The notes under the pieces: model-generated
Told to the model about the DNA's origin: nothing
Databases searched by the model: none
Seen by the model: the letters and a program-made list of their open reading frames with translations, nothing else
Part shown: piece by piece, positions 5,411-62,785 of the stretch
Numbering within the stretch: position 1 is the first letter of the stretch
Layout: each line of letters opens with the position of its first letter
Origin: Cliona cf. orientalis
Taxonomy: Eukaryota; Porifera; Demospongiae; Clionaida; Clionaidae
Direction: 5' to 3'
DNA length: 64,000 nucleotides
Assembly (NCBI GenBank): GCA_963930775.1
Contig: OZ005691.1
Span: forward strand, 5,639,000 to 5,702,999
Position numbers and translations under genes: made by a program

Positions 5411-6808
5411 ATCGATGGGGAAGGGGTCAGGAAACTTTTGGTGAGGATCCCTACCTCATCTCTCAGATGGGAAATGCATACACTCGTGGCCTGCAAGAAG
5501 GTAGTGATAGCAAGTACCTGAAAATAGCAGCCTGTGCCAAGCACTTTGCTGTACACAGTGGACCAGAGGAAAGCCGTCTTGAGTTTACAGCAAATGTTAC
5601 TATTCATGATCTATATGACACCAGGATTCAAATCCCAAGTTATTGAAGCAAAAGTGGCTCAGGTGATGCCCGCTTACAGTGGCTTGAAATGCAAGTATAT
5701 CCTGAAAGGGGCTCCTGATGTTGCCAATTCCTTTCTCCTGAAGACTGTCCTCCGAGAAAAATTCAATGCACCCAATATTTCCGTGGTGTCCGATAATGGA
5801 GCTGTTGGATTTGTGTACACCAAGATGAAGTAGCTACGTCACAGACGAGGAGACAGCAGCTGCAGTGTGCATTAATGCCACACTGATCTTGATCTTGGCC
5901 ATGATGAAATTTATCCTACTTACTTACCCAAGGCATTGGACAATGGCAAGGTGAATTTGCAAACCATTAGAGATGCGGTGGTGAGGAATTTCTATCTTCG
6001 AATGAGGCTTGGAGATTTCGACCCTCCGTCCATGGTGCCGTATCAGAGCATCGATAAGAGCCACCTGAATACACCTCAAAATCAAGCACTAAATTTGCAG
6101 GCTGCCCGTGAATCTATTGTTCTACTGAGGAATTCTGGTCAAGCAATTCAGCTTCCACTATTACCAAAAAACATAATTGAAATAACTGTTATTGGTCCCC
6201 ATGCCAATTCCACACAAGCCTTGCTATCCAGCTATGAAGGTATCCCCCCCCAAGACTGTCACAGTTTTGGAAGGTATTCAAAATGTATTAAAAGGTACGA
6301 ATGCTGACATAAAGTATGCCCCAGGGTGCATGGATGCCAAATGTAAAGACATGTCGAAATTTGAAGAAGCACTCGAACTCTGTACGGACAATAAACTGGT
6401 TGTCATGGTGATGGGAATGGATCAGTCTATAGAAAGTGAGGGTCGAGACCGAGGTCTAACAAACTGCTACGGACTGAGTAATGGTGTGCTTGGTCTTCCT
6501 GGTTGCCAAAGTATAACATTGCAGCTATCGTTGAAGCTTTCTATCCGGGAGCCCAGGGAGGCACTGCAGTAGCTGATGTCCTCTTTGGTCTATACAACCC
6601 TGCAGGACGAATGCCTGTCTCAATACTCTGGGGACTCTATCGTGTACCTGCACCAACAAATTACAACATGACTGGCAGGACTTATCATAACATGGATGAA
6701 AACCAACAGTATCAGTTTGGATATGGCTTATCTTACTCGGTGTTTAATTATACTAATTTCACTATAAGTCCCTCGACAATCACCCCCTGTGATTCAATCC
6801 GGGCATCT

Positions 6809-7154
6809 CAGGGGCGGATCCAGAACCTCCAATAAGGGGGGTGCTAAAGTTAATATTTGCGCGCGAAGCGCGCGCGAAAATTTTGGCCACGCCCCCTTTT
6901 TACGAAACCACGCCCACTTAATTGCCGCGAAACGAGGCAATAACCAGAAAACGTGGAAAAATCAGTGGAAGTCGAGTTTTTGTCTCTACAGACAGGTTTA
7001 TCAGTCATATTTTATAGCTAAATGTATGTTAGATCGAGGTTTTTGACTAGAAGGGGGGTGCTAGAGCTAGCTATGTCTATAGAAGCCTGTATGTTGTCTT
7101 GGCTGGAGGGGGGGTGCTTGAGCACCCCAAGCACCCCCCCTGTATCCGCCCCTG
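6809..7154. mobile_element. hAT-like MITE, 346 bp, 5-bp TSD CATCT, inside GH3-1
   Basis: GH3-2 and GH3-3 read GGGCATCTGTAACAG without a gap. Here CATCT is duplicated (6,804-6,808 and 7,155-7,159) around a segment with terminal inverted repeats CAGGGGCGGATCCAG and CTGTATCCGCCCCTG (14 of 15 match). The interior is G-rich near the ends and has no transposase. CAGGG ends are typical of hAT elements. A 5-bp duplication is shorter than the usual 8 bp but is also seen for the related element at 29,991-30,379. Confidence 0.88.
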
Positions 7155-7748
7155 CATCTGTAACAGTCACCAACATAGGTGATCCTGCAGGAGATGAAGT
7201 CGTACAACTCTATGTCTCTCCACCCAGACTAAACAACAAACCCTATGTTCAATTGCGATCGTATGATCGAGTTTCTCTTCAGCCCTCCCAGAGTCATATA
7301 GCTACATTTGAACTGAACCCATACCTCCTCTCCCTTGTTGATGAGGATGGAGAACACTACATTTTTCCTGGCGAGTACCTTGTTCTTACTGGTAACCAAC
7401 CTGATTCTTGGATCGATGCATTTAACAACATGCTGAAGGCTAATTTGACAATTATGGGAAGTGCTCCAGTGAAGACATCCACATGTACCTCTTCCCCGCT
7501 GTGTCTTGCTTGCTGACTGAAAAGTAAAATTTTCCTGTGATAACTTATAACAGTAACTGCTACTATTATAGTATACTATAATTGTGTATGTACATGACAT
7601 AATATTATGTACCGGCATTGATCTATCTTTTTCTAAGAAATGAATGACCCATAATAATATGGAACCTTGCCACTACAGAGTATCAATCAGATAGATAATT
7701 GTTATTTTTATGCTAATTGTGCATGTGGTTACTACAACGATATAATTA

Positions 7749-10069: not shown

Positions 10070-13000
10070 GCTACTGGGGTGGAGTAGTATGTGCCAGTGA
10101 AAGTAAAATTAATGTATACTGTCAAATCATGCTAATGGCCAATAACACAGCTATAGATACTGGAGGGTCCATATACTTGTCCAGGACTAACATATCGTTT
10201 TTAAGCAAACATAGTACAATTGTGAGTAATGAAGCTAAAGCTGCATGGCCATAGAGGAGCAATATTTGCACGCGAAAGTCAACTTACGTTTGCCAGTGGC
10301 TATGGAAAGCTAGTTAGAAATAAAGCAGACCATATGGTGGAGCAATATGGCTATGCCAGAGAAAGCAAACTGATTGTAGAAGAGAACAGCAGGATGAATC
10401 TGAGTACTAACCTAGTATTGCACAATGGAGGTGGTTTATATTTGATAATGAGCGAACTGAATACTAAAGGGCACAACTTGTACTTCAATGAAAACCAAGC
10501 TAACGGCAATGGTGGAGGGATCCATGCTGACAACTCTTCCATTACAATTGAATGAGAAATTCACCTTATCAACAAAGTAGCTGAAAATGGAGGAGCAATC
10601 AGCCTGGAGAGATATACCAAATTATTGGGAAAGTCAGATAATAATGACACTATCAATTTGATATCAAACACAGCCAGGCATCATGATGGAGCCCTATATT
10701 ATGTTAAGGACGAGACCAATTCTGAGATGTCTGCAGCAGTTCATTCTTCAAAAACTGAGTGTTTTTCAAGATCAGTATTATTAAAATTTTAGCTTTTTGG
10801 ACAATTCTGCTGGCATTTCTGGTACAAACCTTTTCGGAGGACTGTTGGACTAATGTACAATGCATACAAAATTCCATCCGAGGAATCAAAAAGTGGACTC
10901 AAACGAGCTGAACTGGGACTTGACATCTTTCAAAACTCTAGTAACATTGATGAATCACAGTTGGATACTATTACTTCTGATCGTGTTCGGTCATGCTTTG
11001 CCAAGATGATCGACCGGACTGAGGCTATCAGCCAGAGCCCATCCAAGTTAAGGCATTTTCTCTTAAACTTGCTGCATTTAATCATATCCTAAGGCCGGTC
11101 AGAGCTGATGTCACGGAATATCAATTCAACAGCTAGTGGTAAGATTGCAGGCCAGAACATTGACAAAGTTTGTACAGAAATAGTACTACAATTCAATCTC
11201 TCAACCCAGGTTGAATCTGCCAATCTGACACTCTCCGTCATAGGACCTTGTAATGTCGCTGGAATATTGGTAAAAACTGCTATTATTCAATTTACTTGCA
11301 CTTGCCCAATTGGATTTCAAGTGCTCGTTACTAACAACAAATCATGTGACTGCATTTGTCACCGAGTGATTCAGCCATATCCGAAAACAGAATGCAATCC
11401 AACAATTGAATCCATCATCAGGAGAGAGAACTTTTGGATATCTTACATCAACCATATCTGGTCCAACTCAAGTGGTTATGTAGTTTACCCACACTGCCCT
11501 TTTGATTTATTGCTACACACCTGATAAATCAGTCAGCATCAATTTGAACCTTCCTGATGGATCAGATGCACAGTGCAATTCAAATCGTATGGGAACACTA
11601 TGTGACACTTGCAAGGCAAATTGCAGTGTGTCTCTGGGAAGTTCAAAATGCATATTCTGTCCATCCTACTGGCCTGGCTTGCTTGCTACAATCACTACAG
11701 TCTTCATTATATCAGGCATAGGTTTGGTAGCCATTATATTAGCTCTCAATTTAACTGTCAATTGCTATAGGCACACTCAATGCCATAATCTTCTATGCCA
11801 ACGTAATAGCTGCAAACAAGAGTGCATTTTTCCCATCTGGAGTGAGCCCTGCCTCTGTTTTCATTTCATGGCTTAACTTTAACCTTGGCTTTGATGCTTG
11901 CCTCTTTGATGGAATGGATACATATGTCAAGACATGGCTTCAACAGCATACATCATTATCCTAGTAGTGATGATAATCCAACTCAGCTATTATTTCAATG
12001 CTTTTGGGCGTCTTATTGGAAAGAAAGATCCGGTGGCCACTCTGGCTATATTGATCTTGCTCTCTTACACCAAGTTCCTACAGACCATCATCACAGCTTT
12101 CTCCTCTGCCACTCTAGCCTATCCTGATGGCTCTAAGAAGACTGTGTGGCTGCCTGATGCTTTTCTTGAATATTTTTCCAGCAAACATGCTGTTAAACAG
12201 TGTTGTTCTTTGTAGCCATTCTCATTCTTCTAGCTGGCCTCATTTCACTTTCTTGCTTTTCTCATGGCAATGGTTGTTTCAATGTCCGAGAAATAAAGTG
12301 AAGAGGATCGGAAATCAAAAACTCAGCTCCTTCATTGAAACCTACCTCATCCCCTACACACCAAAACATCGCTACTGGACTGGCCTACTACTACTAGTTC
12401 GTGTGAGTGTGTATCTGGTGTCAGCGTTTAACCCCTCTGGTGACCCAAGAGTTACACTATCAGCAGCAAACTTCATCATGACAATCCTAGTCATTTACAT
12501 TGCTATATTTGGTGTGAGAATGTATAAGAATCACTTCATCAATGCAATGGAAATACTCACGTATTTTAACATCATTGCCATCTCCATTTATACAATTGAT
12601 GCCAACACAAACCAGACAGCCATCACCAATGTATCCGTTGGAATAATCTTTATTCAGCTTACAGCAGTCATTCTGTACCATACCTACAAACACACGAATC
12701 AAACTATAATCCAAAGAAGTGTGATTTGTATTAAAATGAAGGAAAAGTTGTTCCCCCAAAAGCAGAAACGAGTTGATAACCACAGATCTAGAGTATCAAT
12801 TGACGAAGATATCCATCAATTTCACATATTCCTTGACATGATCGACCGTCCTGCAAACACAGACGATTATAACATCCCCCAAATCCAGCAGAAGCCAGCT
12901 GAGCCAACCCAGTCTGTTGTGGAGATACCTAATTAACCCTGTCAGAGCTGCACCTGCTACAACTCAGCCTCTGGAAGCCATAAAGGAAGGAGAGCTTGAG

Positions 13001-14628: not shown

Positions 14629-16453
14629 ATGAAAATTTAGCTATAGGTGCATCTCATTCACAAAATTGGCTCTTTTTTTGCTTGTACTCTCAGTGACACT
14701 GAGCAGCTCCATCCAGTAGCTACGCTGCTGCAGCAAGTGACGATGAGATCAATATCATTCCAATGGCTGACAGTCCCTGTCCAGGTGCTTCCAAGGGAGA
14801 ACCCTGCTTTACCTTACAGCAGTTCATTGCCAAACATATCGGCCCCAACCGTACAGAGTTCAGCACTAACACAACATTGAAGTTTAATCCCGGACAACAC
14901 CTCATGGATTCTCAACTCTCCGTATCTCCTGTCAACTCATTCACAATGTGGGCTACAGAAAAAGTTAGCTACAATTTTTTGCCGCCAGCCCTACTATGAT
15001 TACAGATTTAAGTTTGACGAAGTACAGAATGTTCAGGTTAGGGGCATTATTCTCAACGGTTGTAGAGTCTCTCTGCTTCAAAGTGGTCCTGTAGGAAATG
15101 CTGCTTTTATTAAAAGCTCGTTTGTGAACAACACTGGATACTTATGCTGCTCTCGGGGAGGAGTTCTAACTATGAATTATATGTCCTATTCAGGAGCGGG
15201 GTCTTCAGTGCTAATCAAACAGTGTGTGTTTTCTGATAACATTGGAGGAACTGGATCCATCTTTGACAGCAGTCATAATTTAACAGTTGATCAGTGCACC
15301 TTCAAAAACAATTACGGTGCTTACTATGAAGGCGGAGCAATCTACTCAAGTAGTGATTACATATCTATTCTCAACAGTCATTTCAGCAACAATAAGGACG
15401 TTTCACAAGGAGGAGCTGTTTCCATTATGTCCAATCGAGTAACTATAGCCAATAGTTACTTTAGTGACAATGTAGCTGGTGGTCAAGGTGGCGCAGTTGT
15501 TGCATTTGGTAGCCCAGTGGTGGTAACTAACTGTTACTTCAGAGATAACATAGCAAATTCCCGCGGTGGGGCTCTCTATGTTTACGGCAGCAATGATGGA
15601 GTAATCATAACGGACAGCTAACATGGCAGGATCCAGTGGTGGTAATGGTGGAGCAATTTTCATTGGTGGAGCATTCACACAGAGTGGTAACCACAGGGAC
15701 ATCCAGGCCACAGGTCAATTTCCGGATCCCTATATCACAATTAGTGGTAACACTTTCGAGCATAACATAGCCAGCAATGGTGGAGGAGGGGCAATATACT
15801 CGGGTGTACAGTACTCAAGCATTTTACTGATAAAGAATACCTTCAGTCACAATACTGCCGCCAACTGTGGAGCGGTGCAAATCAGTGAACCCTACCTTCA
15901 CTATAATGCAACATTCATTAAAAATATTTTCACCCACAATAGCGCCGTGGGGCAACCTGGCGGGAAGAATGAAGGAGGTGGTATGTGTATTAATAAAGCC
16001 TCTGCTGTATTTTCGGACAACACATTCAGCCACAACACGGCAACAGGAAATGCTGGAGCACTGCGAGTGGATGACTGTGATACAGTGACAATTGAAAGGT
16101 CTAAATTTAGTAACAACGTAGCCCAAGGTGATGGTGGAGGGATTTACTCTTACCACTTTTCAACCAATTACACAATTACCCAGTCTTCCTTTGTTAACAA
16201 TCGGGCTGGTGGTGATGGTGGGGTGATGTGCGTGGAAAGCACCAGTAGCCAGGTGAAGATTCGTACAGGGACCTTTAACTATAACCTTGCAGCTGATAGA
16301 GGAGGTGTCACTCTGCTGATTAATAGAGCCAATGTCTATAATAGTAACAATACTGCACATCTAGGAGGAGTGGTCAGTGCTTACAATAGTAAGGTCAGGA
16401 TTTCCCACCCCAAAATCCCTGCCACTCCTGATCCCATCCATCCATTCTGCTAA
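14629..16453 (+). pseudogene. PmpB1: broken secreted beta-helix protein
   Basis: Over most of its length this is very close to PmpA3 (for example repeats GGAIYSSSDYISILNS and GGAVSIMSNRVTIANSYFSD). The N-terminal end is broken by three separate GCTA insertions after TA: 14,640-14,643 (in the signal peptide), 14,719-14,722 and 14,968-14,971. Near 15,620 a short deletion joins ACAGCTA to ACATGGCAGG, ending the frame. About 30 bp are missing near 16,310 and the last codons before the tail are altered (IHPFC then stop). It lacks any membrane segment. Confidence 0.85.
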
Positions 16454-19250: not shown

Positions 19251-19254
19251 TTTT

Positions 19255-20505: not shown

Positions 20506-20688
20506 AATTAGGCTTAATTAAGCATATGGGCGTGTTCCTGGCACTGTGTGGAGTGTGTGCGTGTGCGTTAATGCAGGTTTTATTGCTTCCGATTGGGCGT
20601 GGCTTCACGGGCCAGTGCTTGGATATCGGCGCCTAAGACTTGGCCTCGGCGATAGGTGGGCGTGTCCCGGAAGCTGTGGTGACCTTTG

Positions 20689-21197: not shown

Positions 21198-22776
21198 GAC
21201 CTTTGAACCCCGCGAGGAGGCTTTGTGGGCGTGGCAGGAGGTCAAAGGTGAGGCCATGTCCGTTAATGAGGCACTGTACGTACGCCAGTGCGATCGAGGG
21301 GACCGTACGGCTGGACGGAAGCTGACGATGGTTTGAAGCGGATATGGTTGCGATGACGTGTTGTTACCCCGCCCACACAGGAAATGAGGTGAGCTCTTGC
21401 GTGGGCGGTGTGGCAGAACGGCCTCCAAGTGTTTGTGTGTGTTTTGGCCTTGAGGAAGCTGTGTGTTTTAATTGGGGTTGATTGTGGGCTTCCGGTGGAC
21501 ATCCGGTGGCCAGTCGGCACTTGATTGAGAATGGTGGCCCTTGAGGCACAGGGTGGTGCCGTTTGGGGCGTGGCCTGGCCCCTCCCTTCCGGCTCGGCTT
21601 CCGATCCATGGAGGATATTAAATGAACACTTCCGGCTCTAGCAGCCACACCCCTGAGACCTGGGCAATTAAAAGGGCGTGGTTACACAACATGCACCTCA
21701 CTAATGACTTTGATGTGGTTTAGGTGTCATATTCCCCACCTCACGCCCACGCAATTTAATGGTACCTTAAGTCCAGAGAATTCATCTGACTGACTTCAGT
21801 GAACTATAATAGACTAAAAATCAGTCAGGTGAATTCTCGAAGAAGTAGAAGTTAGTGTAAAAAGAGCATAAGACCCTAGAGTTACTCATGGGAAGATTTT
21901 AAACCATCACAGCCTGGAGTTACTCATGGGAGGATTTTAAACCAGCACAACCTTGAGTTACTCTAGGGAATGTTTTAAACCATGGATGTTTGTCTAAAAT
22001 CCTCAGGTTTAAAAATAGTTGTTCCCTTATATAAGGGAGGATTTTACACCACTTCAAAATTGTAGGGTCTCACTCGTGTAATTTTCTACCCCATAGTATA
22101 ATATATTTCATATATATGGCACAATTTTAAACCACTTGCAGTAACCCAATATGATCTGGTTTAAAACAGTCCCACATAATATGAAGCTCCTAACTCACTG
22201 AAGAATCATTTTACATCTGAACCCTGACCTCACTTAAAATCCTCCCTTATATATAAGGGATCACAACTACACTCAGGCATAGTTTTACCTTCGAAAGTGG
22301 ATGGCAGTAGCGCTACGTAGCTTTGCCAGTAGCAGTGATGACCTTTGACCTTACGAGGGCGGGGCTGGTCTGCAAGCGGTGCTGGATATATATGGGAATG
22401 TACAAAATAAAAGGTGGGGCTGCACGTGTACTGCTCTACACGATTGCGTTCTTAGAAATTATTTCAGTAGTTAGGTAGCTCTCTCGACTACGTATGAAGC
22501 TATTCAAGGTGTTTCTGTTGTTTCTGCTTGGGGGGTGACTATCGGCTTAAGCCTGTTTCTTTAGAAGCATTCTCCCAGTTCTGTGGATGTGATGGAAGAG
22601 CTAGCTAACTTGCTGTTTGCGATAACTCAACCAGTCCTCCTTCAACAATCACACTTTACCAGAGGTACAGCCTTGCTGGTTGTCATTTTGTCCTTCCAGC
22701 GGTGATCATTCTACTTGAGTTGTTACAGAGGTCTGGAATATAAGACTGCCTATGTATACTGTTTATTAATTTTTAA

Positions 22777-25796: not shown

Positions 25797-25885
25797 TTAT
25801 GTGGGACTGTTTTAAACCAGATCATATTGGGTTGCTGCAAGTGGTTTAAAATCATGCCATATAGCTATATATGAAATATATTATC

Positions 25886-27236: not shown

Positions 27237-27375
27237 TGGGGTAGAAAGTTACACGAGTGAGACCCTACAATTTTGAAGTGGTGTAAAATCCTCCCTTATA
27301 TAAGGGAACAATTAGCTATTTTTAAACCTGAGGATTTTAGACAAACATCCATGGTTTAAAACACTCCCTAGAGTA

Positions 27376-41039: not shown

Positions 41040-43850
41040 AGCGTCACTGTAAGAAAAGCTCCTTTAATTGACAACAATAGAGCAGGTTATGATGGTGGAG
41101 TTATGTAAACTATGTATCTTTCAGTAGCAGTATCACTCTGGGCAACAGCTTCTTTGGCAACAATGAAGCTGGTGATGATGGTGGAGTAGTATTTACACAA
41201 TACAGTAGCAGCGTCACTGTGGACAATAGCTTTTTTGATAACAATGTAGCACGTCAGTATGGCGGAGTTACATTAGCATACTCCAGCAGCATCACTGTGG
41301 GCAGTAGCTCCTTTGACAATGGGCTCTTCCATTTAATAGGCATACACCCCCCATTGAGGAGTGATAATTACATCCTGAGGGGTCTTTTTTGTGAGTTTCT
41401 TGAGGGTCCTTTTGGCAATTTAATTGGTTCTTATGGGGCTCTTTTGGCGATTTTAATTAATCTTGTGGGGTATTTTCTATCAAAAAATAGATTCTGGAGG
41501 GGTCAAGCAACTACTTACTAATTTCCAGAGGGTATTTCAGATAAATTTAATTGATCCTAGGGGGTTCAACTGTCCAAATTAATTATTCTTAGGGGGCAAA
41601 ACGAGTTAATTAGTTCCTGGGGGGTCATTTCACAATTTGCTCCTCAATAGGGGGTGTTTGCTTATAAAATGGAAAAGCCCAATAATGAAGCCGACAATGA
41701 TATCGATGGTGGAGTTATGTCTGTGGACTACAGCTCTTTTAAATTAAAGGAAACAGTGGGAAATAATTGTATTTTTATCAGAAATCAAGGCTATATATAC
41801 TGTGGTGGAGTAGTAGTCTATGTGCCGGTGAAAGTAAAATTAGTGTATACTGTCAAATCATGCTAATGGCCAATAACACAGCTATAGATATTGGAGGTCC
41901 ATGTACTTGTACAGGACTAACATATCGTTTTTAAGCAAACACAGTACAATTGTGAGTAATGAAGCTAAAGCTGGAGGAGCAATATTTCACGTGAAAGTCA
42001 GCTTACGTTTGCCAGTGGAAGTGGAAAGCTAGTTGGAAATAAAGCAGACGATGGTGGAGCAATATATGCCAGAGAAAGCAAACTGATTGTAGAAGAGAAC
42101 AGCAGGATGAATCTGAGTACTAACCTAGTATTGCACAATGGAGGAGGTTTATACTTGATAATGAGTGAACTGAATACTAAAGGGTACAACTTGTACTTCA
42201 ATGAAAACCAAGCTAACGGCAATGGTGGGGGATCCATGCTGACAACTCATCCATTACAATTGAAGGAGAAATTCACCTTATTAATAATGGAGCTGAAAAT
42301 GGAGGAGCAATCAGCCTGACGAGATATACCAAATTATTGGGAAAGTCAGATAATAATGACACTATCAATTTGATATCAAATACAGCCAGCCATCACGGTG
42401 GAGCCCTATATGTTAAGAACGAGACCAATCCTGGAATGTGTGCAGCAGTTCATTCTTCAAAAACTGAGTGTTTTTCAAGATCAGTATTTAATATTGAGCT
42501 TTTTGGACAATTCTGCTGGCATTTCTGGTACAAATCTTTTCGGAGGACTGTTGGACAGATGTACAATGCATGCAAAGTTCCATCAGGAGTCAAAGAGTGG
42601 ACTCAAACGAGCTGAACTGGGACTTGACATCTTTCAAAACTCTAGTAACATTGATGAACACAGCTGGATACTATTACTTCTGATCCAGTTCGATTATGCT
42701 TTTGCCGAGATGATCGACCGGACTGCAGCTATCAGCCGCAGAGCCCATCCAAGTCAATAGAAGGAAGGCATTTTCTCTTAAACTTGCTGCATTTAATCAT
42801 AATATCCTAAGGCCGATCAGAAGTGAAAAGGATCAGAAATCAAAAAATCAGCTCCTTCATTGAAACCTACCTCATTCCCTACACACCAAAACATCGCTAC
42901 TGGACTGGCCTACTACTACTAGTTCGTGTGAGTGTGTATCTGGTGTCAGCGTTTAACCCGGCCCTCTGGTGTGAGAATGTATAAGAATCACTTCATCAAT
43001 GCAATGGAAATACTCACGTATTTTTACATCATTGCCATCTCCATTTTCACCTTGTATACAATTGATGCCAACACAAACCAGACAGCCATCACCAATATAT
43101 CCAATGGAATAACCTTTATTCAGCTTACAGCAGTCATTCTGTATCATACCTACAAACGTACGAATCAAAGCTATCTACTATGATCCAAAGAAGTGTGATT
43201 TGTATTAAAATGAAGGAAAAGCTGTTCCCCCAAAGCAGAAACGAGTTGATAACCACAGATCTAGAGTACCAATTGACGAAGACATCCATCAATTTCACAT
43301 ATTCCTCGACATGATCAACCGTCCTGCAAACACAGATGATTATAACATCCCCCAAATCCAGTAGCTAGAAGCCAGTTGAGCCAACCCAGTCTGTTGTGGA
43401 GATATCCAATCCTGTCAGAGCTGCACCTGCTACACCTCCCCCTCCTCAGCCTCTGGGAGCCATAAAGGAAGGAGCAGAGCTTGAGGCTGAGGAAGGGCTG
43501 CAGGAAAGCCAGCAAGATAGTGTCGATAATATTATGATTCCAGTGACTGAGAATCTAGCAACAGAGATTAGCAATACTAAGCACTGCATCAACAACCGCC
43601 CTGGAATTGAAATCTCAGAATGCGACAATACCAGTTGCACAAATCCTGAAAACGCCAGCTGTAATATCCTTGAGGAAAATTTTATTTCCATACCGCATTC
43701 TAATCCTCAAATTAATTATTCTGGTATCGAAGAAGGCAAAGAAAGAGCTCTGGAGACGACTCAATCGGATGGCAAGGGTCAGAGTTCACATAATGTTCTT
43801 CCATTCCCAGCAGACGGTGCTCAGCAGAGCATCATTGTCGAGCCCAAGAT
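41040..43850 (+). pseudogene. PmpTM2: deleted beta-helix membrane protein
   Basis: It parallels PmpTM1 but lacks about 1.2 kb. At 42,818 the sequence jumps from the post-helix region (GGCCGATCAGA) to AGTGAAAAGGATC, removing the Cys-rich module and the first membrane segments. A further 77 bp are lost near 42,955 (TTTAACCCGGCCCTCTGG). Other damage is AATT at 41,066-41,069, a 360-bp MITE at 41,321-41,680 and small shifts near 41,990. The cytoplasmic-like tail (EAEEGLQESQQDS, ISECDNTSCTNPENAS) is open from 43,396. It has no foldback transposon at the site used in units 1 and 3. Confidence 0.82.
41321..41680. mobile_element. 360-bp MITE with ~31-bp inverted repeats, TSD AAT
   Basis: Units 1 and 3 read TTTGACAATAATGAAGCC directly. 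The ends are GGGCTCTTCCATTTAATAGG and (reversed) GGGCTTTTCCATTTTATAAG. AAT is duplicated at the junctions. The interior is a set of diverged repeats of the form TAGGGGGT.AATTAATT. It has the 3-bp target size of Harbinger. Confidence 0.82.
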
Positions 43851-44081: not shown

Positions 44082-45309
44082 TCACAATTAGCTACCAACC
44101 AGCTATAGCTAACATTTCACATCGCATGAACAAATCACCACAAATAATATTATAAATAAATCCTTATCATAATAATTATGTTTCATTCTTTTCCCACTGA
44201 CTTAATAGTCCTTTATAATAATTATTACAATGTAATATTGTCATCAACTAGCTATAGCTGACCACTGGCAATCACAAGTTCAGCTATAATATTAAAATAT
44301 AGTATTATTATACATAGCTATCAACTGATAGCTAGGTACGTCTGTACTATAATTATTATCATGCTATAGCTGAAACTGAGCAAACTGTATGATAGAAGTC
44401 AACCAAGAATGTTAGTAAAGTCAGATCAAGTATATACCACCATGATTCTAATTTGCTATCCCACTTGAGATTGATTTATACCCCCTCAATTGGACTTTCC
44501 CTATAATAATTATTATTATGGGGTTGCAATCTTCCCCTTCAAGGGCCAACTAGGCCCACCACGCCCACCCCCCTCCCGCCCCAAATACAAAAGTTTAATA
44601 CTGACCTATAATCAGTGTGACAATTAGCTAGATTCTGAAGTAGGGCCTGGTGACTCTGGCCTCTGTCTCTCTATCACTTCGACTGAGCTACCATATGAAT
44701 TTCTCAAAGCCTTCTTTTAATACATTTATACAATATCATCAAGTGCATGAGTTACTGTAGGACAGGTGGGTATCTTATGTAGCAAGTTCTCCATTTGCAA
44801 ACTGGATGTACATAATAGTTTTTATTATTGTGGTACAGGGTCAAAATTCATATTATTATTGTTAGTGAATTCATTAACTTGCTATTGATAATTACTGGAA
44901 AGCTAGCTATAGAGAGATGGAGGCGAATTCCCTCTTTGATCCACACAATTAAAATCCATCCTATAGTGCCACTATGACACGCAACAACGCATCAATTGGA
45001 CAGAGAGGATGTGACATACAATATCAACGCATGGTGGGTATAGGTCATCACCCCCTTGAGCATGCGCAGTCGATACTGACGCTTCATGTATAAGTACGAT
45101 TCTAGTAAATCACATGCATGATCATGACTCCCAGACTCGCATGAACAATAGTTTAATAGCTATAATGAACAATAAATAGGCCTATATATAGTGCTGCATA
45201 GCTAGATTTAACTTTGTTTGATATCACAGGTAGCTAACTAGCTATAGTGCTTTGCCTTCAAAGATAGCCAGATTAGCTACAGTGTGTAGCTACTCGTGGT
45301 ACTCACAGA
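44082..45309. other. Spacer PmpTM2-PmpB2
   Basis: It matches 13,390-14,628, including the conserved Pmp upstream block near 45,033-45,075. A CATG insertion relative to unit 1 lies at 45,117-45,120. No gene. Confidence 0.55.
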
Positions 45310-47362
45310 AACGAAAATTTATAGGTGCATCTCATTCACAAAATTGGCTCTTTTTCTGCTTGTACTCTCAGTGATACTGAGCAGCTCCATCCAGTACGCT
45401 GCTGCAGCAGGTGATAATGAGATCAATATCATTCCTACGGCCGACAGTCCCTGTCCAGGTGCCTCCAACGGAGAACCCTGCTTTACCTTATAGCAGTTCA
45501 TTGCCAACCATATTGGCCCCAACCGTACAGAGTTCAGCACTAACACAACATTAAAGTTTTATCCCGGACAACACCTCATGGATTCTCAACTCTCCGTATC
45601 TCATGTCAACTCATTCACAATGTGGGCTACAGAAAAAGTTACAATTTTTTGCCGCCAGCCCTACAGTAACTATGATTATAGATTTAAGTTTGACAAAGTG
45701 CAGAATGTTCAGGTTAGGGGCATTATTCTCAACGGTTGTAGAGTCTCTCTGATTCAAAGTGGTCCTGTAGGAAATGCTGCTTTTATTAAAAGCTCGTTTG
45801 TGAATAACACTGGATACTTATGCTGCCGCTCTTGGGAGGAGTTCTGGACATGAATTATATGTCCTCTCCATCTTTGACTTCAGTCATAATTTAACAGTTG
45901 ATCAGTGCACCTTCAAAAACAATTACGGTTCTTACTGGGAAGGAGGAGCAATTTTCAAAAGTGATGGATACATATCTATTCTCAACAGTTGTTTCAGCCA
46001 CAATAAGGATGTTTCACAAGGAGGAGCTGTTTCCATTATAGCCAATCAAGCAACTATAGCCAATAGTTACTTTAGTGACAATGTAGCAGGTGGTAGAGGT
46101 GGCGCAGTTATTGCATTTGCTAACCCGGTCGTAGTAACTAACTATTACTTCACTGACAACATAGCAAAACCCAACGGTAGTGACGGTGGGGCTCTCTATG
46201 CTTATGGTGTAGGAATTATCATAAAGGACAGCTACTTCAATGACAACATGGCAGAACCCAGGGGTGGTAATGGTGGAGCAATTTCATTAAAGAAGCAAGC
46301 ACACAGAGTGTTAACTACAGGGACATCCAGGCCACAGGTCAATCTCCCAATGTCACGATTAGTGGTAACACTTTCGAGTATAACATAGCCAGTGATGGTG
46401 GAGGAGGGGCAATATAGCTACTCGGGTGTACAGTACTCAATCATTTCACTGTTAAAGAATACTTTCAGTCACAATACTGCCGCCAACTGTGGAGCAGTGC
46501 AGATCAGTGAACCCTACCTTCACTATAATGCAACATTCATTAAAAATATTTTCACCCACAACAGCGCCATGGGGCAACCTGGCGGGAAGAATGAAGGAGG
46601 TGGTATGTGTATTAATAAAGCCTCTGCCTTATTTTCGGACAATACATTCAGCCACAACACGGCAACAGGAAATGGTGGAGCACTGCGAGTGGATGACTGT
46701 GATGCAGTGACAATTGAAAGGTCTAAATTTAGTAACAACATAGCCCAAGGTGATGGTGGAGGGATTTACTCTTACCACTTTTCAACCAATTACACAATTA
46801 CCCAGTCTTCCTTTGCTAACAACCGGGCTGGTGGTGATGGTGGGGTGATGTACTTGGAAAGCACCAGCAGCCAGGTGAAGATTCGTAAAGGGACCTTTAA
46901 CTATAGCCTTGCAGCTGATAGAGGAGGTGTCATCGCCATTAATGGAAGCGCTCTGCTGATTAATGGAGCCAATGTCTGTAATAGTAACAATACTGCACAT
47001 CTAGGAGGAGTGGTCAGTGCTTGCAATAGTAAGGTCAGGATTTCCCACCCCAAAATCCCTGCCACTCCTGATCCCATCCCATACTTGCCAACCTATCTAA
47101 ACCTGAAAGTGGGACAAAATCTTTGAAAAAGTGGGATTTTTGGCCTGAAAGTGGGACATTACTAAAAAACTTGGCAAAAATAGCCAAAATTACCGAGTTT
47201 GTTAGGAAAAATTGCACAAAAAAGTCACAAAAAATAGGGACAAACCTTATTTTAAGCAAAGAAAAAGTGGGACAGTGCACCAAAAATAGGGACTGTCCCT
47301 CCAAAATAGGGACGGTTGGTAAGTATGCCATCCATCCATTCTGTACCCTTTACAACTGTTAA
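45310..47362 (+). pseudogene. PmpB2: broken secreted beta-helix protein
   Basis: The start codon equivalent is ACG instead of ATG (in CAGAAACGAAAAT near 45,309), and CAG became TAG at 45,491-45,493 in TLQQF. There is a deletion near 45,865 joining TATGTCC to TCTCC. Further shifts lie near 46,285, and GCTA is inserted at 46,417-46,420. A 248-bp MITE sits just before the normal tail. The long open part (about 46,430-47,079) keeps rungs GGGMCINK, GGGIYSYH, GGVIAING. Clearly not translated as a full protein. Confidence 0.85.
47080..47327. mobile_element. 248-bp MITE, TSD CCATCC, in the 3' end of PmpB2
   Basis: The ends CATACTTGCCAACC and (reversed) CATACTTACCAACC lie between CCATCC at 47,074-47,079 and 47,328-47,333; other Pmp copies read GATCCCATCCATCC. 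The interior repeats AAAGTGGGAC and AAAATAGGGAC. It is the same family as 43,851-44,075. Confidence 0.9.
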
Positions 47363-47792
47363 AATTCAAACAACAATGATAATAGGTAGCTAGCTAGTTA
47401 GTCCCTGAGTGACATTGTGTGTATTCTCTGCATTTAGATTATAGGATTAGGAACTTGTAGCTACTCGTGCAATGTATTTTGTGATCCCTTAATTTATTGT
47501 CCAGGCAAAAAAGAAATCATTAGTGGCATGGGATAGGAAAGGTGACTTAATCAAATACAATGTATGATCCAGTGTAACATAAGAAATTTGATTCAAGTTC
47601 TTGACCGGAGTTTTGAATTCAATCTAACGTAAGATAGCGAAATAAAACTTGAAGTTATTCCAATCCTAGCTTAGAGGCATTCTTGTCCTATAGTGTGTGC
47701 TAGTGGCCTTACCAGTAACCTGGAAGCGTCTTTGTCATAACGAAATGTGCCATAAGTGTCATTACATGTCCTTTGCATAGCTAGCTGATGTA

Positions 47793-48005: not shown

Positions 48006-48509
48006 TAATAATGATAAAAGTTTTGTCACTGCAACTGTCCATAAGACTATGTGTAGCAGACCCAAATTCTCCTACACACTATAGCTACTTCAAAATATCC
48101 CCTAAGATGTTACACCATTATCGATCTTTGCATTGTTGATTCTTGATAATATAATAATCATGAGTGTTTATAAGTCCAGAGAATTCACCTGACTGACTTC
48201 CAGTGATAATACAATCACTATAATAGACTAAAGTCAGTCAGGTGAATTCTCAGGACTAAACCAGCCTGACTCAGCTGAATCATATATATAATAAATCAGT
48301 CAGGTGAATTCTTGGGACTAAAACAGTCATAATGATATTATATTATTATCATAGTATTATTGTAGACCATAATAGCTAATCTTTAATAGTAAACCACCCG
48401 TGGAGAGGGGGAATTCACATAAATTCACCTGACTGCATGCAACAATATTTCCACCCTAGTGAGTAACCTCTAGCTCTGGTTCTTGCTGATAAGCATTGAA
48501 CAATGTGTA

Positions 48510-51827: not shown

Positions 51828-51938
51828 AATTCAAACAATAATGATAGTAGCTAGTTAATCATTGTGTGTATTCTCTACGCTTAGATCACAAACTTGTACC
51901 CGTGCAATGTACACTAGTAAATTTAATTTTGTGATCCC

Positions 51939-53401: not shown

Positions 53402-55126
53402 TTAATTTTATATTATCCAAAAGATTATGTAGTGGGATAGGGAAGGTGATTTAATCAAATACAATGCATGATCCAATGTAGCGTACGTAAGAAATTTGAT
53501 TTCTGGAATTATGAATCCAATCTAACATAAGGTATGTAGCTAGCGAAGTAAAATTATTCCAATCCTAGCTTAGAGACATTATAATTGTTTATCCTAGTGT
53601 GCGCTATTGGCTAAGCTCATCTGGAAGCGTCCTTGTCACAACAAAATTAACGTGCCATAAGTGGCATTACATATCCTTTGCATAGCTAGCTGATGTAATA
53701 ATTTTGTCCTCTGGCACTGCAACTGTCCATAAGAGCAGATCGACCCAAATTCTTCTACACTCTATAGTTACTTCAAAATATCCCCTAGGATGTCACACCA
53801 TTATCTTTGCATTGTTGATTCTTGATAAACATGACTGTCCAGAGAATTCACCTGACTGACTTCAGTGATAATAAAAGTTTAATAGACTAAGGTCAGTCAG
53901 GTGAATTCTCGGGACTAAACCGGCTGCATGGATAGCTGAATTATGAATAATAATTATTACTGAAGTCAGTCAGGTGAATTCTTGGGACTAAACCAGTCAT
54001 AATAATGATTATTATCATTGTAGACCATAATAGTTAATCTTAGTAAACCACTCGTGGAGAGGGGGAATTCACATAAATTCACCTGACTGCATGCAACATT
54101 TCCACCCTAGTGAGTAACCTCTAGCTCTGGTTTGTGCTGATAAGCATTGAGGAATGTGTATTAGTCAACCACTCACGTCATGTCTATCTCTAATACTATT
54201 GTGTGCTATCTATTGTCTTGTGAGTTTATATAGCTATAGATCCTCACTGAAGACTACTGGTATCTGGTGACACTTCATTGTGGTTAGATAGATCATGCAC
54301 GCACCCTCTTTCAAATCATGTGTGCATGCATGCATGGGTGAATCAAGAGAAGAGGGCAAGTCCAGCAGCTACTGCATGGTATATAGACCACCCAAGAGCC
54401 TTGAAAATAATATGTATCACCTGAGTATAATATACATGTGCAAGGAATAAAGATTTAGTTAATGCAATTTGTCTATTTTCTGTCCGCATTTTCCACACAA
54501 AAAGTTTTTATCATACTGGAAGACTTAGGTGTCATAGTGAGCTGAGATAATAATATAATATCCCTTAAATAATTTGCCCCTAATTGAAGTGATTTACCTA
54601 ACAATTAGTGCCTCTGCAACTGTATTCACAGTTTCAGTTATGTACATGTACTTGTATAATTATGGTGATTTGTACCTATTCTATAGAATCTATAGAATAG
54701 GTACAAATCACCATATGATATTATAGAGCTTACGGCAATAACACTTGAAAATAGAAAATCTGATGATTATTTGCACCATGCATAGCTATAATATATGCAG
54801 AGCTAGAGCACCAGGCCAATCATAATAATAATAATAATATTCTGTATAATAATAATACCGGTATTATAGCCTATAGCTACTTGTCATGAGACAAGATGCT
54901 CACCAGCTATCTAGTGAAGCCATTAACTGCACACAACATTAAAAATTTAATATTAGATCACACAGCATGCCATGGGAAGGGGAATTTACATAGAATCACC
55001 TGACTGCCTTCAACAATATTTCCACCCGATAGAGTAATAATAATAACCACAATAATTATCATCAGACTATTATCATGTTTATGACTAACTATGACCTATA
55101 GCTAGTCGAAGTATATAGTATCTTCT
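53402..55126. other. Spacer PmpA3-AP3
   Basis: This resumes the normal spacer after the retroelement. TCGA at 53,740-53,743 and TGCA at 54,296-54,299 are extra relative to units 1 and 2. 54,474-54,970 has no counterpart in unit 1 and only its right end in unit 2; the two other units have different deletion points, so unit 3 probably keeps the older form. A TA-flanked hairpin lies at 54,663-54,713. No gene. Confidence 0.55.
54663..54713. repeat. 51-bp hairpin flanked by TA
   Basis: Perfect 23-nt arms (TGGTGATTTGTACCTATTC...) surround GAATC, bounded by TA on each side (54,661-54,662 and 54,714-54,715). Its structure parallels the 81-bp hairpin at 27,376. No empty site is available in the window, so insertion is inferred. 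Confidence 0.75.
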
Positions 55127-57351: not shown

Positions 57352-57522
57352 TTTTCCTTTTCTCTCTGAGACCAATGTTACCGTCGGTCAGTAGCTATCG
57401 TGATATTGAACGTGGAAGGAGAGTGCAATTGAGACCACCCCCCGCCCCACCCCCAAATTGGGTTATAAAAAACGTGCTGTGCTAAAATTGAGGATCACTA
57501 GCTGTTTAAACCGTAGATAGTT
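57352..57522. promoter_or_regulatory. Divergent AP3/GH3-3 promoter region
   Basis: A 171-bp spacer with the C-rich box (CCGCCCCACCCCC) and TTGGGTTATAAAAAACG; TTATAAAA is at about 57,463-57,470, some 55 bp before the GH3 ATG. This is the shortest and probably closest to the original form. It carries GCTA inserted at 57,394-57,397. Confidence 0.5.
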
Positions 57523-59900
57523 ATGCCAGTCCATTTCGCGACAACGCCGATGATGTTGCTGCTTTACATTGCAACAGCGACTGCAACCAGAGATAGGGAC
57601 ACTGAGTTCCCAGGACTAAGAAAAAGAGAGCTAACAACCACTCCAACACCTTCAGTTGACTGCCAGAGCAAGCCACAGTCAGCTATGCCCTTTTGCAATA
57701 CAAATCTTTCATTCATGGAGAGAGCCCAGGACCTAGAATCCAGACTATCCATTTCTGAGAAGATAGCTCAAACCTCCACCAATGCACCGGCCATTCCCGG
57801 GCAAGGCTAGGGATCAAGGCATAGCTACAACTGGTGCTCTAACTGCTTGCGTGGTTGGTCCAAATCTGGTGGCCAGTGGCTGAGTGACTTGAAGTGGACT
57901 GTTTTTCCAGCTCCTATTGCATTAGCAGCTACCTTCAATACGGACCTTGTCAATAAAATTGGGCAGGCGACAGCAGATGAAGGCAGAGCTCTCCATAATA
58001 CCATGCTAGCTGCTTTCAATGGCTCGAGCACAGAAGCAGCTGGTCTTAACTGTTTTTCTCCGAATGTCAACCTCTTCCGTGATTATCGATGGGGGAGGGG
58101 TCAGGAGACTTTTGGTGAGGATCCCTACCTCATCTCTCAGATGGGAAATGCATACACTCGTGGCCTGCAAGAGGGCAGTGATAGCAAGTACCTGAAAATA
58201 GCAGCCTGTGCCAAGCACTTTGCTGTACATACTATTCACGATCTATACGACATCTTTCTTCCGGGGTTCAAATCCCAAGTTGTTAGAGCAAAAGTGGCTC
58301 AGGTGATGCCCGCTTACAGTGGCTTGAAATGCAAGTATATCCCGGATGGGGCTCCTGATGTTGCCAACTCCTTTCTCCTGAAGACTGTCCTCCGAGAAAA
58401 ATTCAATGCACCCAATATTTCTGTGGTGTCCGATAATGGAGCTGTTGGATTTGTGTACAACAAGATGAAGTACGTCACAGACAAGGAGACGTACAGCAGC
58501 TGCAGTGTGCATTAATGCCACAACTGATCTTGATCTTGGCCATGATGAAATCTATCCTACTTACTTACCCAAAGCATTGGACAATGGCAAGGTGAATTTG
58601 CAAACCATTAGAGATGCGGTGGTGAGGAATTTCTATCTTTGAATGAGGCTTGGAGATTTCGATCCTCCGTCCATGGTGCCGTATCAGAGCATCGATAAGA
58701 GCCACCTGAATACGCCTCAAAATCAAGCACTAAATTTGCAGGCTTCCCTTGAATCTATTGTTCTACTGAGGAATTCTGGTCAAGCAATTCAGCTTCCACT
58801 ATTACCAAAAAGAAATAACTGTTATTGGTCCCCATGCCAATTCCACACAAGCCTTGTTATCTAACTACGAAGGTATTCCCCCCAAGACTGTCACAGTTTT
58901 GGAAGGTATTCAAAATGTACTTAAAGGTACGAATGCTGACATAAAGTATGCCCCAGGGTGTATGGATGCCAAATGTGAAGATATGTCGAAATTTGAAGAG
59001 GCACTCGATCTCTGTACAGACAATAAACTGGTTGTCATGGTGATGGGAATGGATCAGTCTATTGAAAGTGAGGGTCGAGACCGAGGTCTAACAAACTGCT
59101 ACGGACTGAGTAATGATGTGCTTGGTCTACCTGGTTGCCAAAGTATTTTGGTCGAGAGAGCTACTGCACGAAGCCAGCGGGTGATTCTAGTTATCATAAA
59201 TGGAGGTCCGATAAGCATACCTGATGGCATCTTTTGGAGCGATAATATTGCAGCTATCGTTGAAGCTTTCTATCCGGGAGACCAGGGAGGCACTGCGGTG
59301 GCTGATGTCCTCTTTGGTCTATACAACCCTGCAGGACGAATGCCTGTCTCAATACTCTGGGGACTCTATCGTGTACCTGCATTAACAAATTACAACATGA
59401 CTGGCAGGACTTATCGTAATATGGATGGCGACCAACAGTACCTGTTTGGATATGGCCTATCTTACTCAGTGTTTAATTATACTAATTTTACTATAAGTCC
59501 CTCAACGATCACCCCCTGTGATTCAATCCGGGCATCTGTAACAGTACTAGTCACCAATGTAGGTGGTCCTGCAGGAGATGAAGTCGTACAACTCTATGTC
59601 TGTCCACCCAGACTAAACAACAAGCCCTATGTTCAATTGCGATCTTATGATCGAGTTTCTCTTCAGCCCTCCCAGAATCATGTAGCTACATTTGAACTGA
59701 ACCCATACCTCCTCTCCCTTGTTGATGAGGATGGAGAACACTACATCTTTCCTGGTGAGTACCTTGTTCTTACTGGTAACCAACCTGATTCTTGGATCAA
59801 TGCATTTAACAACATGCTGAAGGCTAAATTGACCATTACGGGAAGTGCTCCAGTGAAGACATCCACATGTACCTCTTCCCCCCAGTGTCTTGCTTGCTGA
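57523..59900 (+). pseudogene. GH3-3: broken GH3 beta-xylosidase-like gene
   Basis: It has the same domain order as GH3-2. Damage includes a 5-bp addition near 57,797 (CCCGGGCAAGG), GCTA at 57,824-57,827, a 42-bp deletion near 58,229 removing the SGPEESRLEF region, GTAC at 58,491-58,494, CGA to TGA at 58,640-58,642 and loss of about 8 bp near 58,812. The C-terminal 348 residues (58,854-59,900) are fully open, with GH3_C and the Fn3-like part and an in-frame ACTAGT insertion near 59,545. The nucleophile region VVSDNGAVGF is kept near 58,425. Confidence 0.85.
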
Positions 59901-60585
59901 CTGAAAAATATAAATTTTCCTGTGATAGCTTATAAAAGTAACTGCTACTATTATAGTATACTATAATTGTGTATGTACATGACATAATTATGTACCGGCA
60001 TTGATCTATCTTTTTCTAATGAATGACCCATAATAATATGGAACCTTGCCACTACAGAGTATTGATCAGATAGATAATTGTTATTTTTATGCTAATTGTG
60101 CATGTGGTTACTACAACAATATAATTATTATAGTAATCAGCCACAAGAGTTTATTGTTGTTGTTATTGTTTTATGTGCATACTATACTGATCGAAACAGC
60201 GTCACTGTAAGAAAAAGCTCCTTTGACAACAATAGAGCAGGTTATGATGGTGGAGTCATGTATGTATCTTTCAGTAGCAGTATCACTGTGGGCAATATAG
60301 CTTCTTTGGCAACAATGAAGCTGGTGATGATGGTGGAGTAGTATTTGCACAATACAGTAGCAGTATCACTGTGGACAATAGTGTTTTTGATAACAATGTA
60401 GCATGTCAGTATGGTGGAGTTATATTAGCATACTCCAGCAGCATCACCGTGGGCAGTAGCTCCTTTGACAATAATGAAGCCGGCAATGATATCGATGGTG
60501 GAGTTATGTCTGTGGACTACAGCTCTTTTAAATTAAAGGAAACAGTGGGAAATAATTGTATTTTTATCAGAAATCAAGGCTACTG

Positions 60586-62785
60586 CAGGTATATATTAGT
60601 CTGACTCCAAATATGGATGATATCGACCCATAGAACAGCATCCGTTATTTGATATTATCACTGACAGTTGAATTTCATCCATTAGTGTTTGTGATGAAAA
60701 TAGTCCTTAAATTATCATCCACAATGGAATGTTTCAATGGCAATGACATGCATTTCATCACTTTTTGGATGATCTTTCTCTATAATATAGCGACAGCACT
60801 GGCTAAATTTATCCATAGTTGGATGATTTCAATCATCGCTATTTGGATGACATTAGTTCATGTTTAAATTCATCCACAGTTGGATGATTTCGATCATCAC
60901 TATTTGGATGATATTGATGTTACAGTACCTTTGAATTCATCCACAGTTGGATGATTTTGATCATCACTATTTGGATGATATTGACGTACCTTTGAATTCA
61001 TCCACAGTTGGATGATTTTGATCATCTCTATTTGGATGATATTTAAATTCATCCACAGTTGGATAATTTTTATCATCACTATTCGGATGATATTAGTTCA
61101 TATTTAAATTCATCCACAATTGGATGATTCCAATCATCATTATTTGGATGACATTGATGTATGTTTGAATTCATCCACAATTGGAAATGAGGAGGCTATT
61201 GAACTGGCTCAGCTAGTAGCCTCAGGAGTCAATATCCACCAGTGTCAGTATCAAGTAGAACTGAAACTCCTTCAAGATGCAGTACCTATCTTAGTGTCTT
61301 TTCTTCTGAAATTGCCTTACGATGTAGAAATACCAAGTGATATCTGTTCTATCATTACCAACATGTGCGATCTTGCCTTAGATCCTACTTGTAACAAATA
61401 CTGTAATCTGATTGGTTAAACTGAAGTATCTATCCTTCATAGAAAATCATGTAAGCTCTGTAGAAAATTATGTAAAGCTCTGTAGAAAATCATGTAAATT
61501 TTCTTGCCTATGGTTAGGGTTGTTGCTAGGCAGCAGTTTATGTATCAAGCTTTTGGGCATTGTTGCTAGGATCTAAACAGGTTAGACACTGTTTAGGAGG
61601 TTTCTACATGATTTAGAAGACTGAAGGGCTCTGTGTAGAATCCCGAGCGAAGCGAGGGTTCTACTGAGCCCCGAGTACAAGTTGATCAGAATCATCCAAC
61701 TAGCTATGGATATCGATGATGTCACTTAATCTTCTTCATTTCCACCTCCGATACCAGAGAACAAGCTTTCGTTTTTTCCCAATCTTCTAAAGATTCGTGG
61801 AACTCACTGCTATTCTGCCGACCAGTGTAGCAAAGGATTAGAAGACATCAATGCATGCAGGAAGTATTCATCGAATCACCTGACTCTAACCCCAGGAATC
61901 TTCACAATCTACTGCCTGCATGGAGTCTGCTGTGGTTTCGAAGTTATGGAACAGCACAAATCACCGTGACATCCCTTCGAGATCTTTTTGTCACATTTTG
62001 AAACCCCTCCAACAACAATAATTTACACTAATTCATGCAACCTACACCAATATACCCTATACAGCGAGCCAACTCATTTTAAGAACACACGTTTCTTTGT
62101 GGACAGATTCCATTGGCGTGGACATATCGGTTGCTCCAGTGGCTACTCAATGGACAAGTACGCAACACAATCGATTGGCAGCATAAACTCCCAAGTGAAT
62201 GAACAAGCTAATGCCAGTCTTCAACGGATCAAAGGACAACTTGCGTACATGAAGCCAGATGATTGTTTTTCATGCGAAAAAAAGCTCGAGTAGATTTAAG
62301 TACTTTATGTTTGTAGCATGATGATGTATCCATTTGCATACCCACACCTGTTAAATATTCACATATATTCGTATTATGTATAATCTCACCTGTATCATAA
62401 TTTTATTGATGATCAAAATCATCCAACTGAGGATAAATTTAAACGTACATCAATATCATCCAAATAGTGATGATCAAAATCATCCAAATGTGGAAGAATT
62501 TAAACGTACATCAATATCATCCAAATAGTGATGATCAAAATCATCCAACTATGGATGAGTTTAAACATGAACTAATATCATCCAAATAGTGATGATCAAA
62601 ATCATCCAACTGTGGATGAATTTAAACGTACATCAATATCATCCAAATAGTGATGATCAGAATCATCCAACTAGCTATGGATATCGATGAATTTAATATC
62701 ATCCATATAAGGATGTTTATCTGTGGCCCATTTTCATCCATATTTGTTCTTTTTAATGGGTCATTTTCATCTCAGAACATACCTC
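60586..62785. mobile_element. Foldback transposon with satellite arms, long form, TSD GCTACTG
   Basis: It occupies the identical insertion point and duplication (60,579-60,585 and 62,786-62,792) as 8,944-10,069. The left arm (about 60,830-61,190) and right arm (about 62,405-62,690) are opposite-orientation arrays of the ~61-bp unit built from CATCCAACTGTGGATGAATT and ATCATCCAAATAGTGATGAT. The 1.2-kb core carries transposase-like coding. As both units share the insertion, it predates the duplication that separated them. Confidence 0.82.
61170..62293 (+). pseudogene. KDZ-like transposase remnant
   Basis: Separate open stretches read NEEAIELAQLVASGVN and KLLQDAVPILVSFLLKLPYD (61,180-61,419), then ADQCSKGLEDINACRKYSS and IFTIYCLHGVCCGFEVMEQH (about 61,820-61,970), then DRFHWRGHIGCSSGY followed by SQVNEQANASLQRIKGQLAY (61,988-62,293). 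The 'N/D-x-C-x-L-H' and 'D-R-F-H-W-x-G-H-x-x-C' pattern resembles Kyakuja-Dileera-Zisupton transposases, which are linked to satellite-rich, long-armed elements. The position where an Asp is expected reads T-N-S-C, and several stops intervene, so it is dead. The family assignment is from memory of the motif. Confidence 0.45.

What the first reader, a model, noticed from the sequence alone, without database searches (positions are those of the whole stretch)
5833..62677. Recurrent 4-bp self-complementary microinsertions, dominated by TA to TAGCTA
Using tandem paralogs as references, GCTA is inserted exactly after a TA at 5833, 14640, 14719, 14968, 25864, 27315, 38274, 46417, 47460, 57394, 57824 and 62674 (start positions). 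CGTA at a TA occurs at 21279. Other 4-bp gains are CATG/TGCA at 10244, 38783, 45117, 54296; TCGA/GATC at 48123, 53740, 60191; GTAC/ACGT at 38755, 58491; AATT at 41066 and (by frame) 12931. All can be written as palindromic tetramers, and the result always has the form NN-xx-NN. One non-palindromic exception is CCTA at 34327. Many cause the frameshifts in the GH3 and PmpB pseudogenes. This looks like one process. Candidates are excision footprints of 2-bp-target elements (one nucleotide left from each end, or a 2-nt palindromic overhang) or P-nucleotide-like end processing. I know of no described process with exactly this signature. Polarity is not certain in every case (for example 60191).
Basis: seen in the sequence. 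Interest (0 to 1): 0.92.

Follow-up and report, generated by a model that had tools for sequence, protein, structure and literature searches.

The report
Recurrent 4-base self-complementary insertion scars
In this animal-like stretch of DNA, copies of duplicated genes keep gaining exactly four bases in a fixed self-complementary pattern (most often TA becomes TAGCTA); the pattern is real and far beyond chance, and it looks like the scars of repaired two-base staggered cuts, such as those left when mobile DNA jumps out, although the source was not found.

Summary
In a self-comparison of the window's paralogs, four bases is the commonest length of derived insertion: 20 gains against 5, 8, 5, 5 and 5 for lengths 1, 2, 3, 5 and 6. 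Fourteen of the 20 have the form AB-xy-AB with a self-complementary, all-four-base unit (chance per gain 0.0085; class defined after seeing the data). Two classes: A, TA to TAGCTA (13 seen, 6 polarised); B, AB to AB-rc(AB)-AB at TG/CA, GT/AC, GA/TC and AG/CT (11 seen, 8 polarised). TAGCTA is also 3.6-fold over-represented in the window (90 against 25). In four of six copy pairs there is one 4-bp gap per 8-26 substitutions; two pairs have none.

Best reading: end-joining scars of 2-bp staggered breaks. Class A resembles a Tc1/mariner-type excision footprint with a self-complementary GC overhang; class B is what flank hairpins opened two bases in would leave. Against it: no resident TA element with GC ends was found here, two enzymologies are needed, and no host genome or reads were available. 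A single unknown mutational process stays nearly as likely. Slippage, microhomology deletion and local templating are disfavoured.

The parts
5833..5836 (.). class A gain TA>TAGCTA in a GH3 copy
   Evidence: lacking in 2 other copies
14640..14643 (.). class A gain TA>TAGCTA, beta-helix/PMP-repeat gene copy
   Evidence: lacking in 3 other copies
14719..14722 (.). class A gain TA>TAGCTA
   Evidence: one clean lacking copy; two more differ by substitutions
14968..14971 (.). class A gain TA>TAGCTA
   Evidence: lacking in at least 2 copies
27315..27318 (.). class A gain TA>TAGCTA (one flank substitution)
   Evidence: one lacking copy on the minus strand
25864..25867 (.). TAGCTA inside a TATA run; net difference 6 bp
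   Evidence: one partner; corrected from 4 bp
38274..38277 (.). class A gain TA>TAGCTA in a GH3 copy
   Evidence: lacking in 2 copies
   Evidence: one lacking copy, which has CA in place of TA
46417..46420 (.). class A gain TA>TAGCTA
   Evidence: lacking in 3 copies
47460..47463 (.). class A gain TA>TAGCTA, diverged flanks
   Evidence: one lacking copy near 51862-51911
57394..57397 (.). class A gain TA>TAGCTA, diverged flanks
   Evidence: one lacking copy
57824..57827 (.). class A gain TA>TAGCTA in a GH3 copy
   Evidence: lacking in 2 copies
62674..62677 (.). class A gain TA>TAGCTA beside the 61-bp satellite; a second copy with it at 61701
   Evidence: lacking in the copy at 9913-9990, present identically at 61683-61719, which suggests that the gain was copied; unpolarised
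   Evidence: lacking in at least 2 copies
   Evidence: one lacking copy
10244..10247 (.). class B gain TG>TGCATG
   Evidence: one lacking copy; a third copy has a larger gap
38755..38758 (.). class B gain GT>GTACGT in a GH3 copy
   Evidence: lacking in 2 copies
38783..38786 (.). class B gain CA>CATGCA in the same GH3 copy, 28 bp away
   Evidence: lacking in 2 copies
48123..48126 (.). class B gain, ATC>ATCGATC (contains TC-GA-TC)
   Evidence: lacking in at least 3 copies
   Evidence: 2 copies lack it and 2 are scored as having it; four lacking rows
53740..53743 (.). class B gain GA>GATCGA
   Evidence: lacking in 3 copies, a fourth differs otherwise
54296..54299 (.). class B gain CA>CATGCA
   Evidence: lacking in 2 copies
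58491..58494 (.). class B gain AC>ACGTAC in a GH3 copy
   Evidence: lacking in 2 copies, one with a substitution beside it
60191..60194 (.). class B gain GA>GATCGA
   Evidence: lacking in 2 copies, so a gain
41066..41069 (.). gain TT>TTAATT (same rule, two bases only)
   Evidence: lacking in 2 copies
34327..34330 (.). exception: TA>TACCTA
   Evidence: lacking in 3 copies
41814..41820 (.). 5-bp gain TA>TAGTCTA
   Evidence: lacking in 2 copies; GTC matches the end of the resident TA-flanked palindrome at 27376-27456
41106..41112 (.). 5-bp gain TA>TAAACTA
   Evidence: lacking in 2 copies
21279..21282 (.). tandem duplication of TACG, not AB-xy-AB
   Evidence: two copies with one unit
45117..45120 (.). 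tandem duplication of CATG, not AB-xy-AB
   Evidence: one partner, with other differences nearby

Best explanation
The gains are end-joining scars of double-strand breaks with a 2-bp stagger; the two copies of AB are the duplicated 2-bp site. Class A (TA to TA-GC-TA) most likely records insertion and later excision of one Tc1/mariner-type family that duplicates TA and leaves a 2-nt 3' overhang GC from its ends. GC pairs with itself, so joining always gives TAGCTA. Class B (AB to AB-rc(AB)-AB) most likely records breaks whose flanks were sealed as hairpins and reopened two bases in: each end then carries a 4-nt 3' tail (AB plus its own reverse complement), the last two bases of the two tails always pair, and fill-in gives AB-rc(AB)-AB for any AB. 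Shown: the gains, their polarity where stated, their exact form and their excess. Inferred: breaks, enzymes, hairpins and the element.
For: Derived 4-bp gains outnumber every other length, 20 against at most 8, and the alignments show no lost bases at the clean sites. TA is 7.5% of dinucleotides (4,793 counted) but takes 13 of the 24 class A+B gains (list). Symmetrised flanks of 38 de-duplicated exact TAGCTA sites prefer A at +2 (0.50 against 0.28, chi2 18.6), and the 13 gains prefer C at +1 (0.46 against 0.20, chi2 12.4), as a target site might. Other TA gains look like footprints too: TACCTA, TAGTCTA, TAAACTA, and resident TA-flanked elements start with CC (39656-40779; 47793-48005) or GTC (27376-27456). 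A review passage says that Tc1/mariner excision leaves a 2- or 3-nt 3' overhang and a footprint with the TA duplication (PMC3878927, passages). Another paper says that Ac/Ds footprints are palindromic sequences from flanking DNA, attributed to hairpins, while mariner/Stowaway footprints keep element bases and the TSD (PMC4561436, passages). At TA or AT the hairpin model predicts a 2-bp duplication instead; derived TATA/ATAT gains are seen at 10332, 16832 and 37796, though slippage also gives these. Sleeping Beauty's favoured non-TA sites are TG/CA (PMC5801840, Results), also the commonest class B seed (5 of 11).
Against: A seed search (7 exact bases beside TA, G first, 40-4000 bp apart, satellite stretches left out) found no resident element with GC ends beyond short chance repeats and one stretch inside another element, and no large insertion has its edge at a gain site. 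The A at +2 seen in the background sites is not clear in the 13 gains themselves (0.35 against 0.28, chi2 3.2). Sleeping Beauty uses non-TA sites in only about 1.4% of insertions (PMC5801840, Results), whereas 11 of 24 gains here are non-TA and follow another rule, so class B is not the same element. I know no hairpin-forming superfamily with a 2-bp target duplication (recalled). Two enzymologies at similar rates in one genome is a coincidence. The matches of CC and GTC to resident ends are weak: several families and few events. GCATGC (25 against 6.4) and TAATTA (36 against 16.1) are also enriched without any matching 4-bp gain.
Confidence: 0.4

Rival explanations
1. One endogenous mutational process, not a mobile element, adds four bases at a 2-bp seed so that a 1.5-unit self-complementary tetramer with all four bases results; this is how (AGCT), (ATGC), (ATCG) and (ACGT) repeats are born in this lineage.
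For: Both classes have the same length, no deletion, a 2-bp overlap and self-complementarity. Apart from C and CG runs, the ATCG, AGCT, ATGC and ACGT classes are near the top of 39 tetramer classes for 1.5-unit excess (2.64, 2.46, 1.99, 1.84; CCCG at 2.09 lies among them), and two-unit runs of AGCT (40 against 6.0) and ATGC (35 against 5.9) are in excess, as are some other classes such as ACTG (41 against 10.1). TAGCTA sites cluster: 21 neighbour gaps of 100 bp or less against 6.6 expected, maximum 17 in 2000 trials (a few of these are adjoining units of one short array). One event per 8-26 substitutions in four of six pairs is high for excision scars.
Against: I can write no chemistry that gives GC at TA and the reverse complement elsewhere. 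With exactly 1.5 units the excess is uneven: TAGCTA 3.3 but AGCTAG/CTAGCT 1.09 and GCTAGC 0.87, so it is not a property of the AGCT class as such.
Confidence: 0.33
2. Replication slippage / microsatellite growth.
For: A few gains are true tandem duplications (31829, 20363; also 21279 and 45117).
Against: The class A and B gains overlap the flank by 2 (a few 3) bases only, so one or two of the four inserted bases are new; the same hexamer does not lie nearby more often than expected (4 of 24 within 60 bp, expected 2.8; 8 of 24 within 200 bp, expected 7.2).
Confidence: 0.07
3. Reverse polarity: microhomology-mediated 4-bp deletions of ABxyAB.
For: A 2-bp direct repeat flanks every class A and B event, as in such deletions; 10 of 24 are not polarised.
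Against: 20 polarised gains against two loss rows, which look like one loss, at length 4. Ordinary ABxyAB hexamers are self-complementary with all four bases in only 8.6%. In the beta-helix gene two copies are open (32296-34185, 49950-51827) while the gains at 14719, 14968 and 46417 lie in the other two copies; four bases shift the frame.
Confidence: 0.03
4. Sequencing or assembly artefact.
For: No reads or second assembly could be examined.
Against: Motif-specific exact 4-bp insertions fit no platform error I know (recalled). The gain at 62674 is present again, identically, at 61701, and many TAGCTA sites are shared by paralogs. No 4-bp row lies in the three aspartyl-protease reading frames, though that is weak and the filter applies.
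Confidence: 0.08

Closest known systems
Tc1/mariner (IS630-Tc1-mariner) excision footprints
   Same: Site TA duplicated, 2 (or 3) extra bases between the copies, no deletion; a target-like flank preference.
   Different: Extra bases are GC in 13 of 14 four-base cases; no resident GC-ended element found; nearly half of the gains are at non-TA dinucleotides with another rule.
hAT (Ac/Ds) and V(D)J-type hairpin/P-nucleotide joints
   Same: Inserted bases are the reverse complement of the adjacent flank, as P-nucleotides are.
   Different: hAT inserts into 8-bp sites (PMC3878927 passage), here the duplicated unit is 2 bp; joints are uniform instead of variable.
Self-complementary tetranucleotide microsatellites, (AGCT)n, (CATG)n, (GATC)n, (ACGT)n
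   Same: Same units; two-unit runs of AGCT and ATGC are in excess here.
   Different: Arrays are short; the gains start from a 2-bp seed and are not tandem duplications.
Topoisomerase II 4-bp duplications (recalled)
   Same: Exactly four bases gained.
   Different: Those duplicate four existing bases; here two of four are new.

Membership tests
Tc1/mariner excision footprint (class A) | target TA present once in the copies without the gain | tested here: met
   seen for most of the 13 TAGCTA gains; the empty copy of 43362 has CA, and flanks of 25864, 47460 and 57394 are diverged
Tc1/mariner excision footprint (class A) | 2-3 element bases between the duplicated TAs | tested here: inconclusive
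   GC lies there, but no element with such ends is known here
Tc1/mariner excision footprint (class A) | resident elements of the family with TA duplication and matching ends | tested here: not met
   seed search for TA + G-initial inverted repeats gave no GC-ended element beyond short chance repeats and one stretch inside another element; window only, satellite stretches left out
Tc1/mariner excision footprint (class A) | DDE/D transposase of the family in the genome | not testable with these tools
   no host genome held
hairpin/P-nucleotide footprint (class B) | extra bases are the inverted copy of the flank | tested here: met
   the 11 class B gains (grouped by this rule) and TTAATT; among non-TA AB-xy-AB rows only AAGAAA (scored as a loss elsewhere) and a TC-AG-TC gap near 14608 do not fit
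hairpin/P-nucleotide footprint (class B) | variable number of P-nucleotides among joints | tested here: inconclusive
   one 3-base version, AGT-ACT-AGT at 59543, lacking in two partners but not scored as a derived gain; otherwise uniformly two
hAT transposon footprint | 8-bp target duplication | tested here: not met
   only two bases are duplicated at the gains
microsatellite slippage | gain duplicates the adjacent unit in full | tested here: not met
   overlap with flank is 2 (a few 3) of 4 bases in class A and B

The most novel reading that the evidence does not exclude
An undescribed germline mutational process in this animal lineage inserts, without loss, four bases that complete a self-complementary tetramer at a 2-bp seed (TA to TAGCTA; AB to AB-rc(AB)-AB). 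It acts at about one event per one or two dozen substitutions, disables genes by frameshift, and seeds self-complementary tetranucleotide repeats across the genome.
Probability: 0.33. Interest if true: 0.85.

Novelty: new variant of a known kind. Interest (0 to 1): 0.62.

Why it matters
If they are footprints, a single window holds the record of very many excisions of elements that are no longer there, and a readout of how this organism repairs hairpinned and overhanging ends. If they are not, a frequent insertion process with a rigid sequence rule has gone unnoticed; it would bias indel models, break genes, and explain how self-complementary tetranucleotide repeats begin. Either way, the rule AB to AB-rc(AB)-AB versus TA to TAGCTA makes the question testable in any genome with recent duplications.

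Tried and rejected
Local template switching: disfavoured, no excess of the same hexamer near the gains. Microhomology deletion and slippage: see rivals. One unified break-repair model: I could not derive GC at TA and the reverse complement elsewhere from the same ends. A Tc1-like element with CA ends inserting at TG/CA would give TGCATG and CATGCA, but not the GT, AC, GA, TC and CT cases, and no TACATA or TATGTA gain is among the 4-bp rows. A general palindrome or tetramer-class effect: rejected in part, because with exactly 1.5 units TAGCTA, GCATGC, TAATTA and GATCGA are clearly raised while CTAGCT, GCTAGC, CGTACG and ATGCAT are not. That table also has raised hexamers that are not self-complementary (CATCCA 63 against 26.5, part of a satellite; CCCACC, CCGCCC, GATAGA), so composition alone is not clean evidence; the paralog gains are. 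Relatives: two scans of genome contigs and scans of viral contigs gave none; one search gave one viral contig that I judged unrelated from its GC of 0.34 and the lack of the second inverted repeat. Literature: nine searches. Searches returned no paper; some searches listed all of 1, 2 and 6; some searches listed 15 of 26, 15 of 68, 20 of 21 and 10 of 148. Judging by titles and abstract starts, none of those listed describes this signature; the library is open-access only, and unlisted papers were not seen. Passages of PMC1925063 show Stowaway footprints made of short element-end pieces, unlike class B. My recollection that rice is rich in such tetranucleotide repeats was not confirmed by any search. 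Rfam (gathering threshold) and tRNA scans of the window were empty.


Full report
What the window is. 64 kb, GC 0.419, no own genome held. It contains tandem copies of an aspartyl-protease gene (Pfam Asp, 1.3e-57), a beta-helix gene with PMP repeats (Beta_helix, 2.2e-18), and a glycosyl hydrolase 3 gene (Glyco_hydro_3_C, 2.4e-23), plus many insertions that look like mobile elements. I guess a marine invertebrate, perhaps a sponge; that is recollection and was not tested (an ORF at 4299-5237 that I read by eye as LINE-like has no Pfam match). No relative was found in the collections scanned (the single hit was judged unrelated).

Noticed in passing
27374-27458: TA-flanked near-perfect palindrome of about 81 bp (GTCTATCAAGC...), lacking in the paralog near 21959; its GTC end matches the 5-bp gain TAGTCTA at 41814.
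   Followed up: partly
39656-40779 and 47793-48005: TA-flanked inverted-repeat elements that begin CCGTAG and CCGTATTTCTTC; CC ends match the odd TACCTA gain at 34325. Only the first was seen absent in paralogs.
   Followed up: partly
59543-59551: AGT-ACT-AGT: a 6-bp insert that is the 3-base version of the class B rule, lacking in two partners but not scored as derived.
   Followed up: partly
10879, 39960, 42737: Derived 2-bp gains that are CG (one CGC), in a sequence where CG is the rarest dinucleotide.
   Followed up: no
13405-14966 and 44089-45287: Dense clusters of TAGCTA, most of them shared by two paralogous stretches.
   Followed up: partly
20688-21197: About 500-bp element made of two long inverted arms with an 8-9 bp overlap of the flank, absent from two related copies.
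   Followed up: no
9752-9963, 60804-61185, 62407-62672: 61-bp satellite (ATCATCCAA...) in both orientations.
   Followed up: no
6809-7153: Insertion of about 350 bp beginning CAGGGGCGGATCC, hAT-like by its ends (recalled), in one GH3 copy.
   Followed up: no
whole window: GCATGC and TAATTA are also strongly over-represented as exact 1.5-unit runs although no matching 4-bp gain is among the rows.
   Followed up: no
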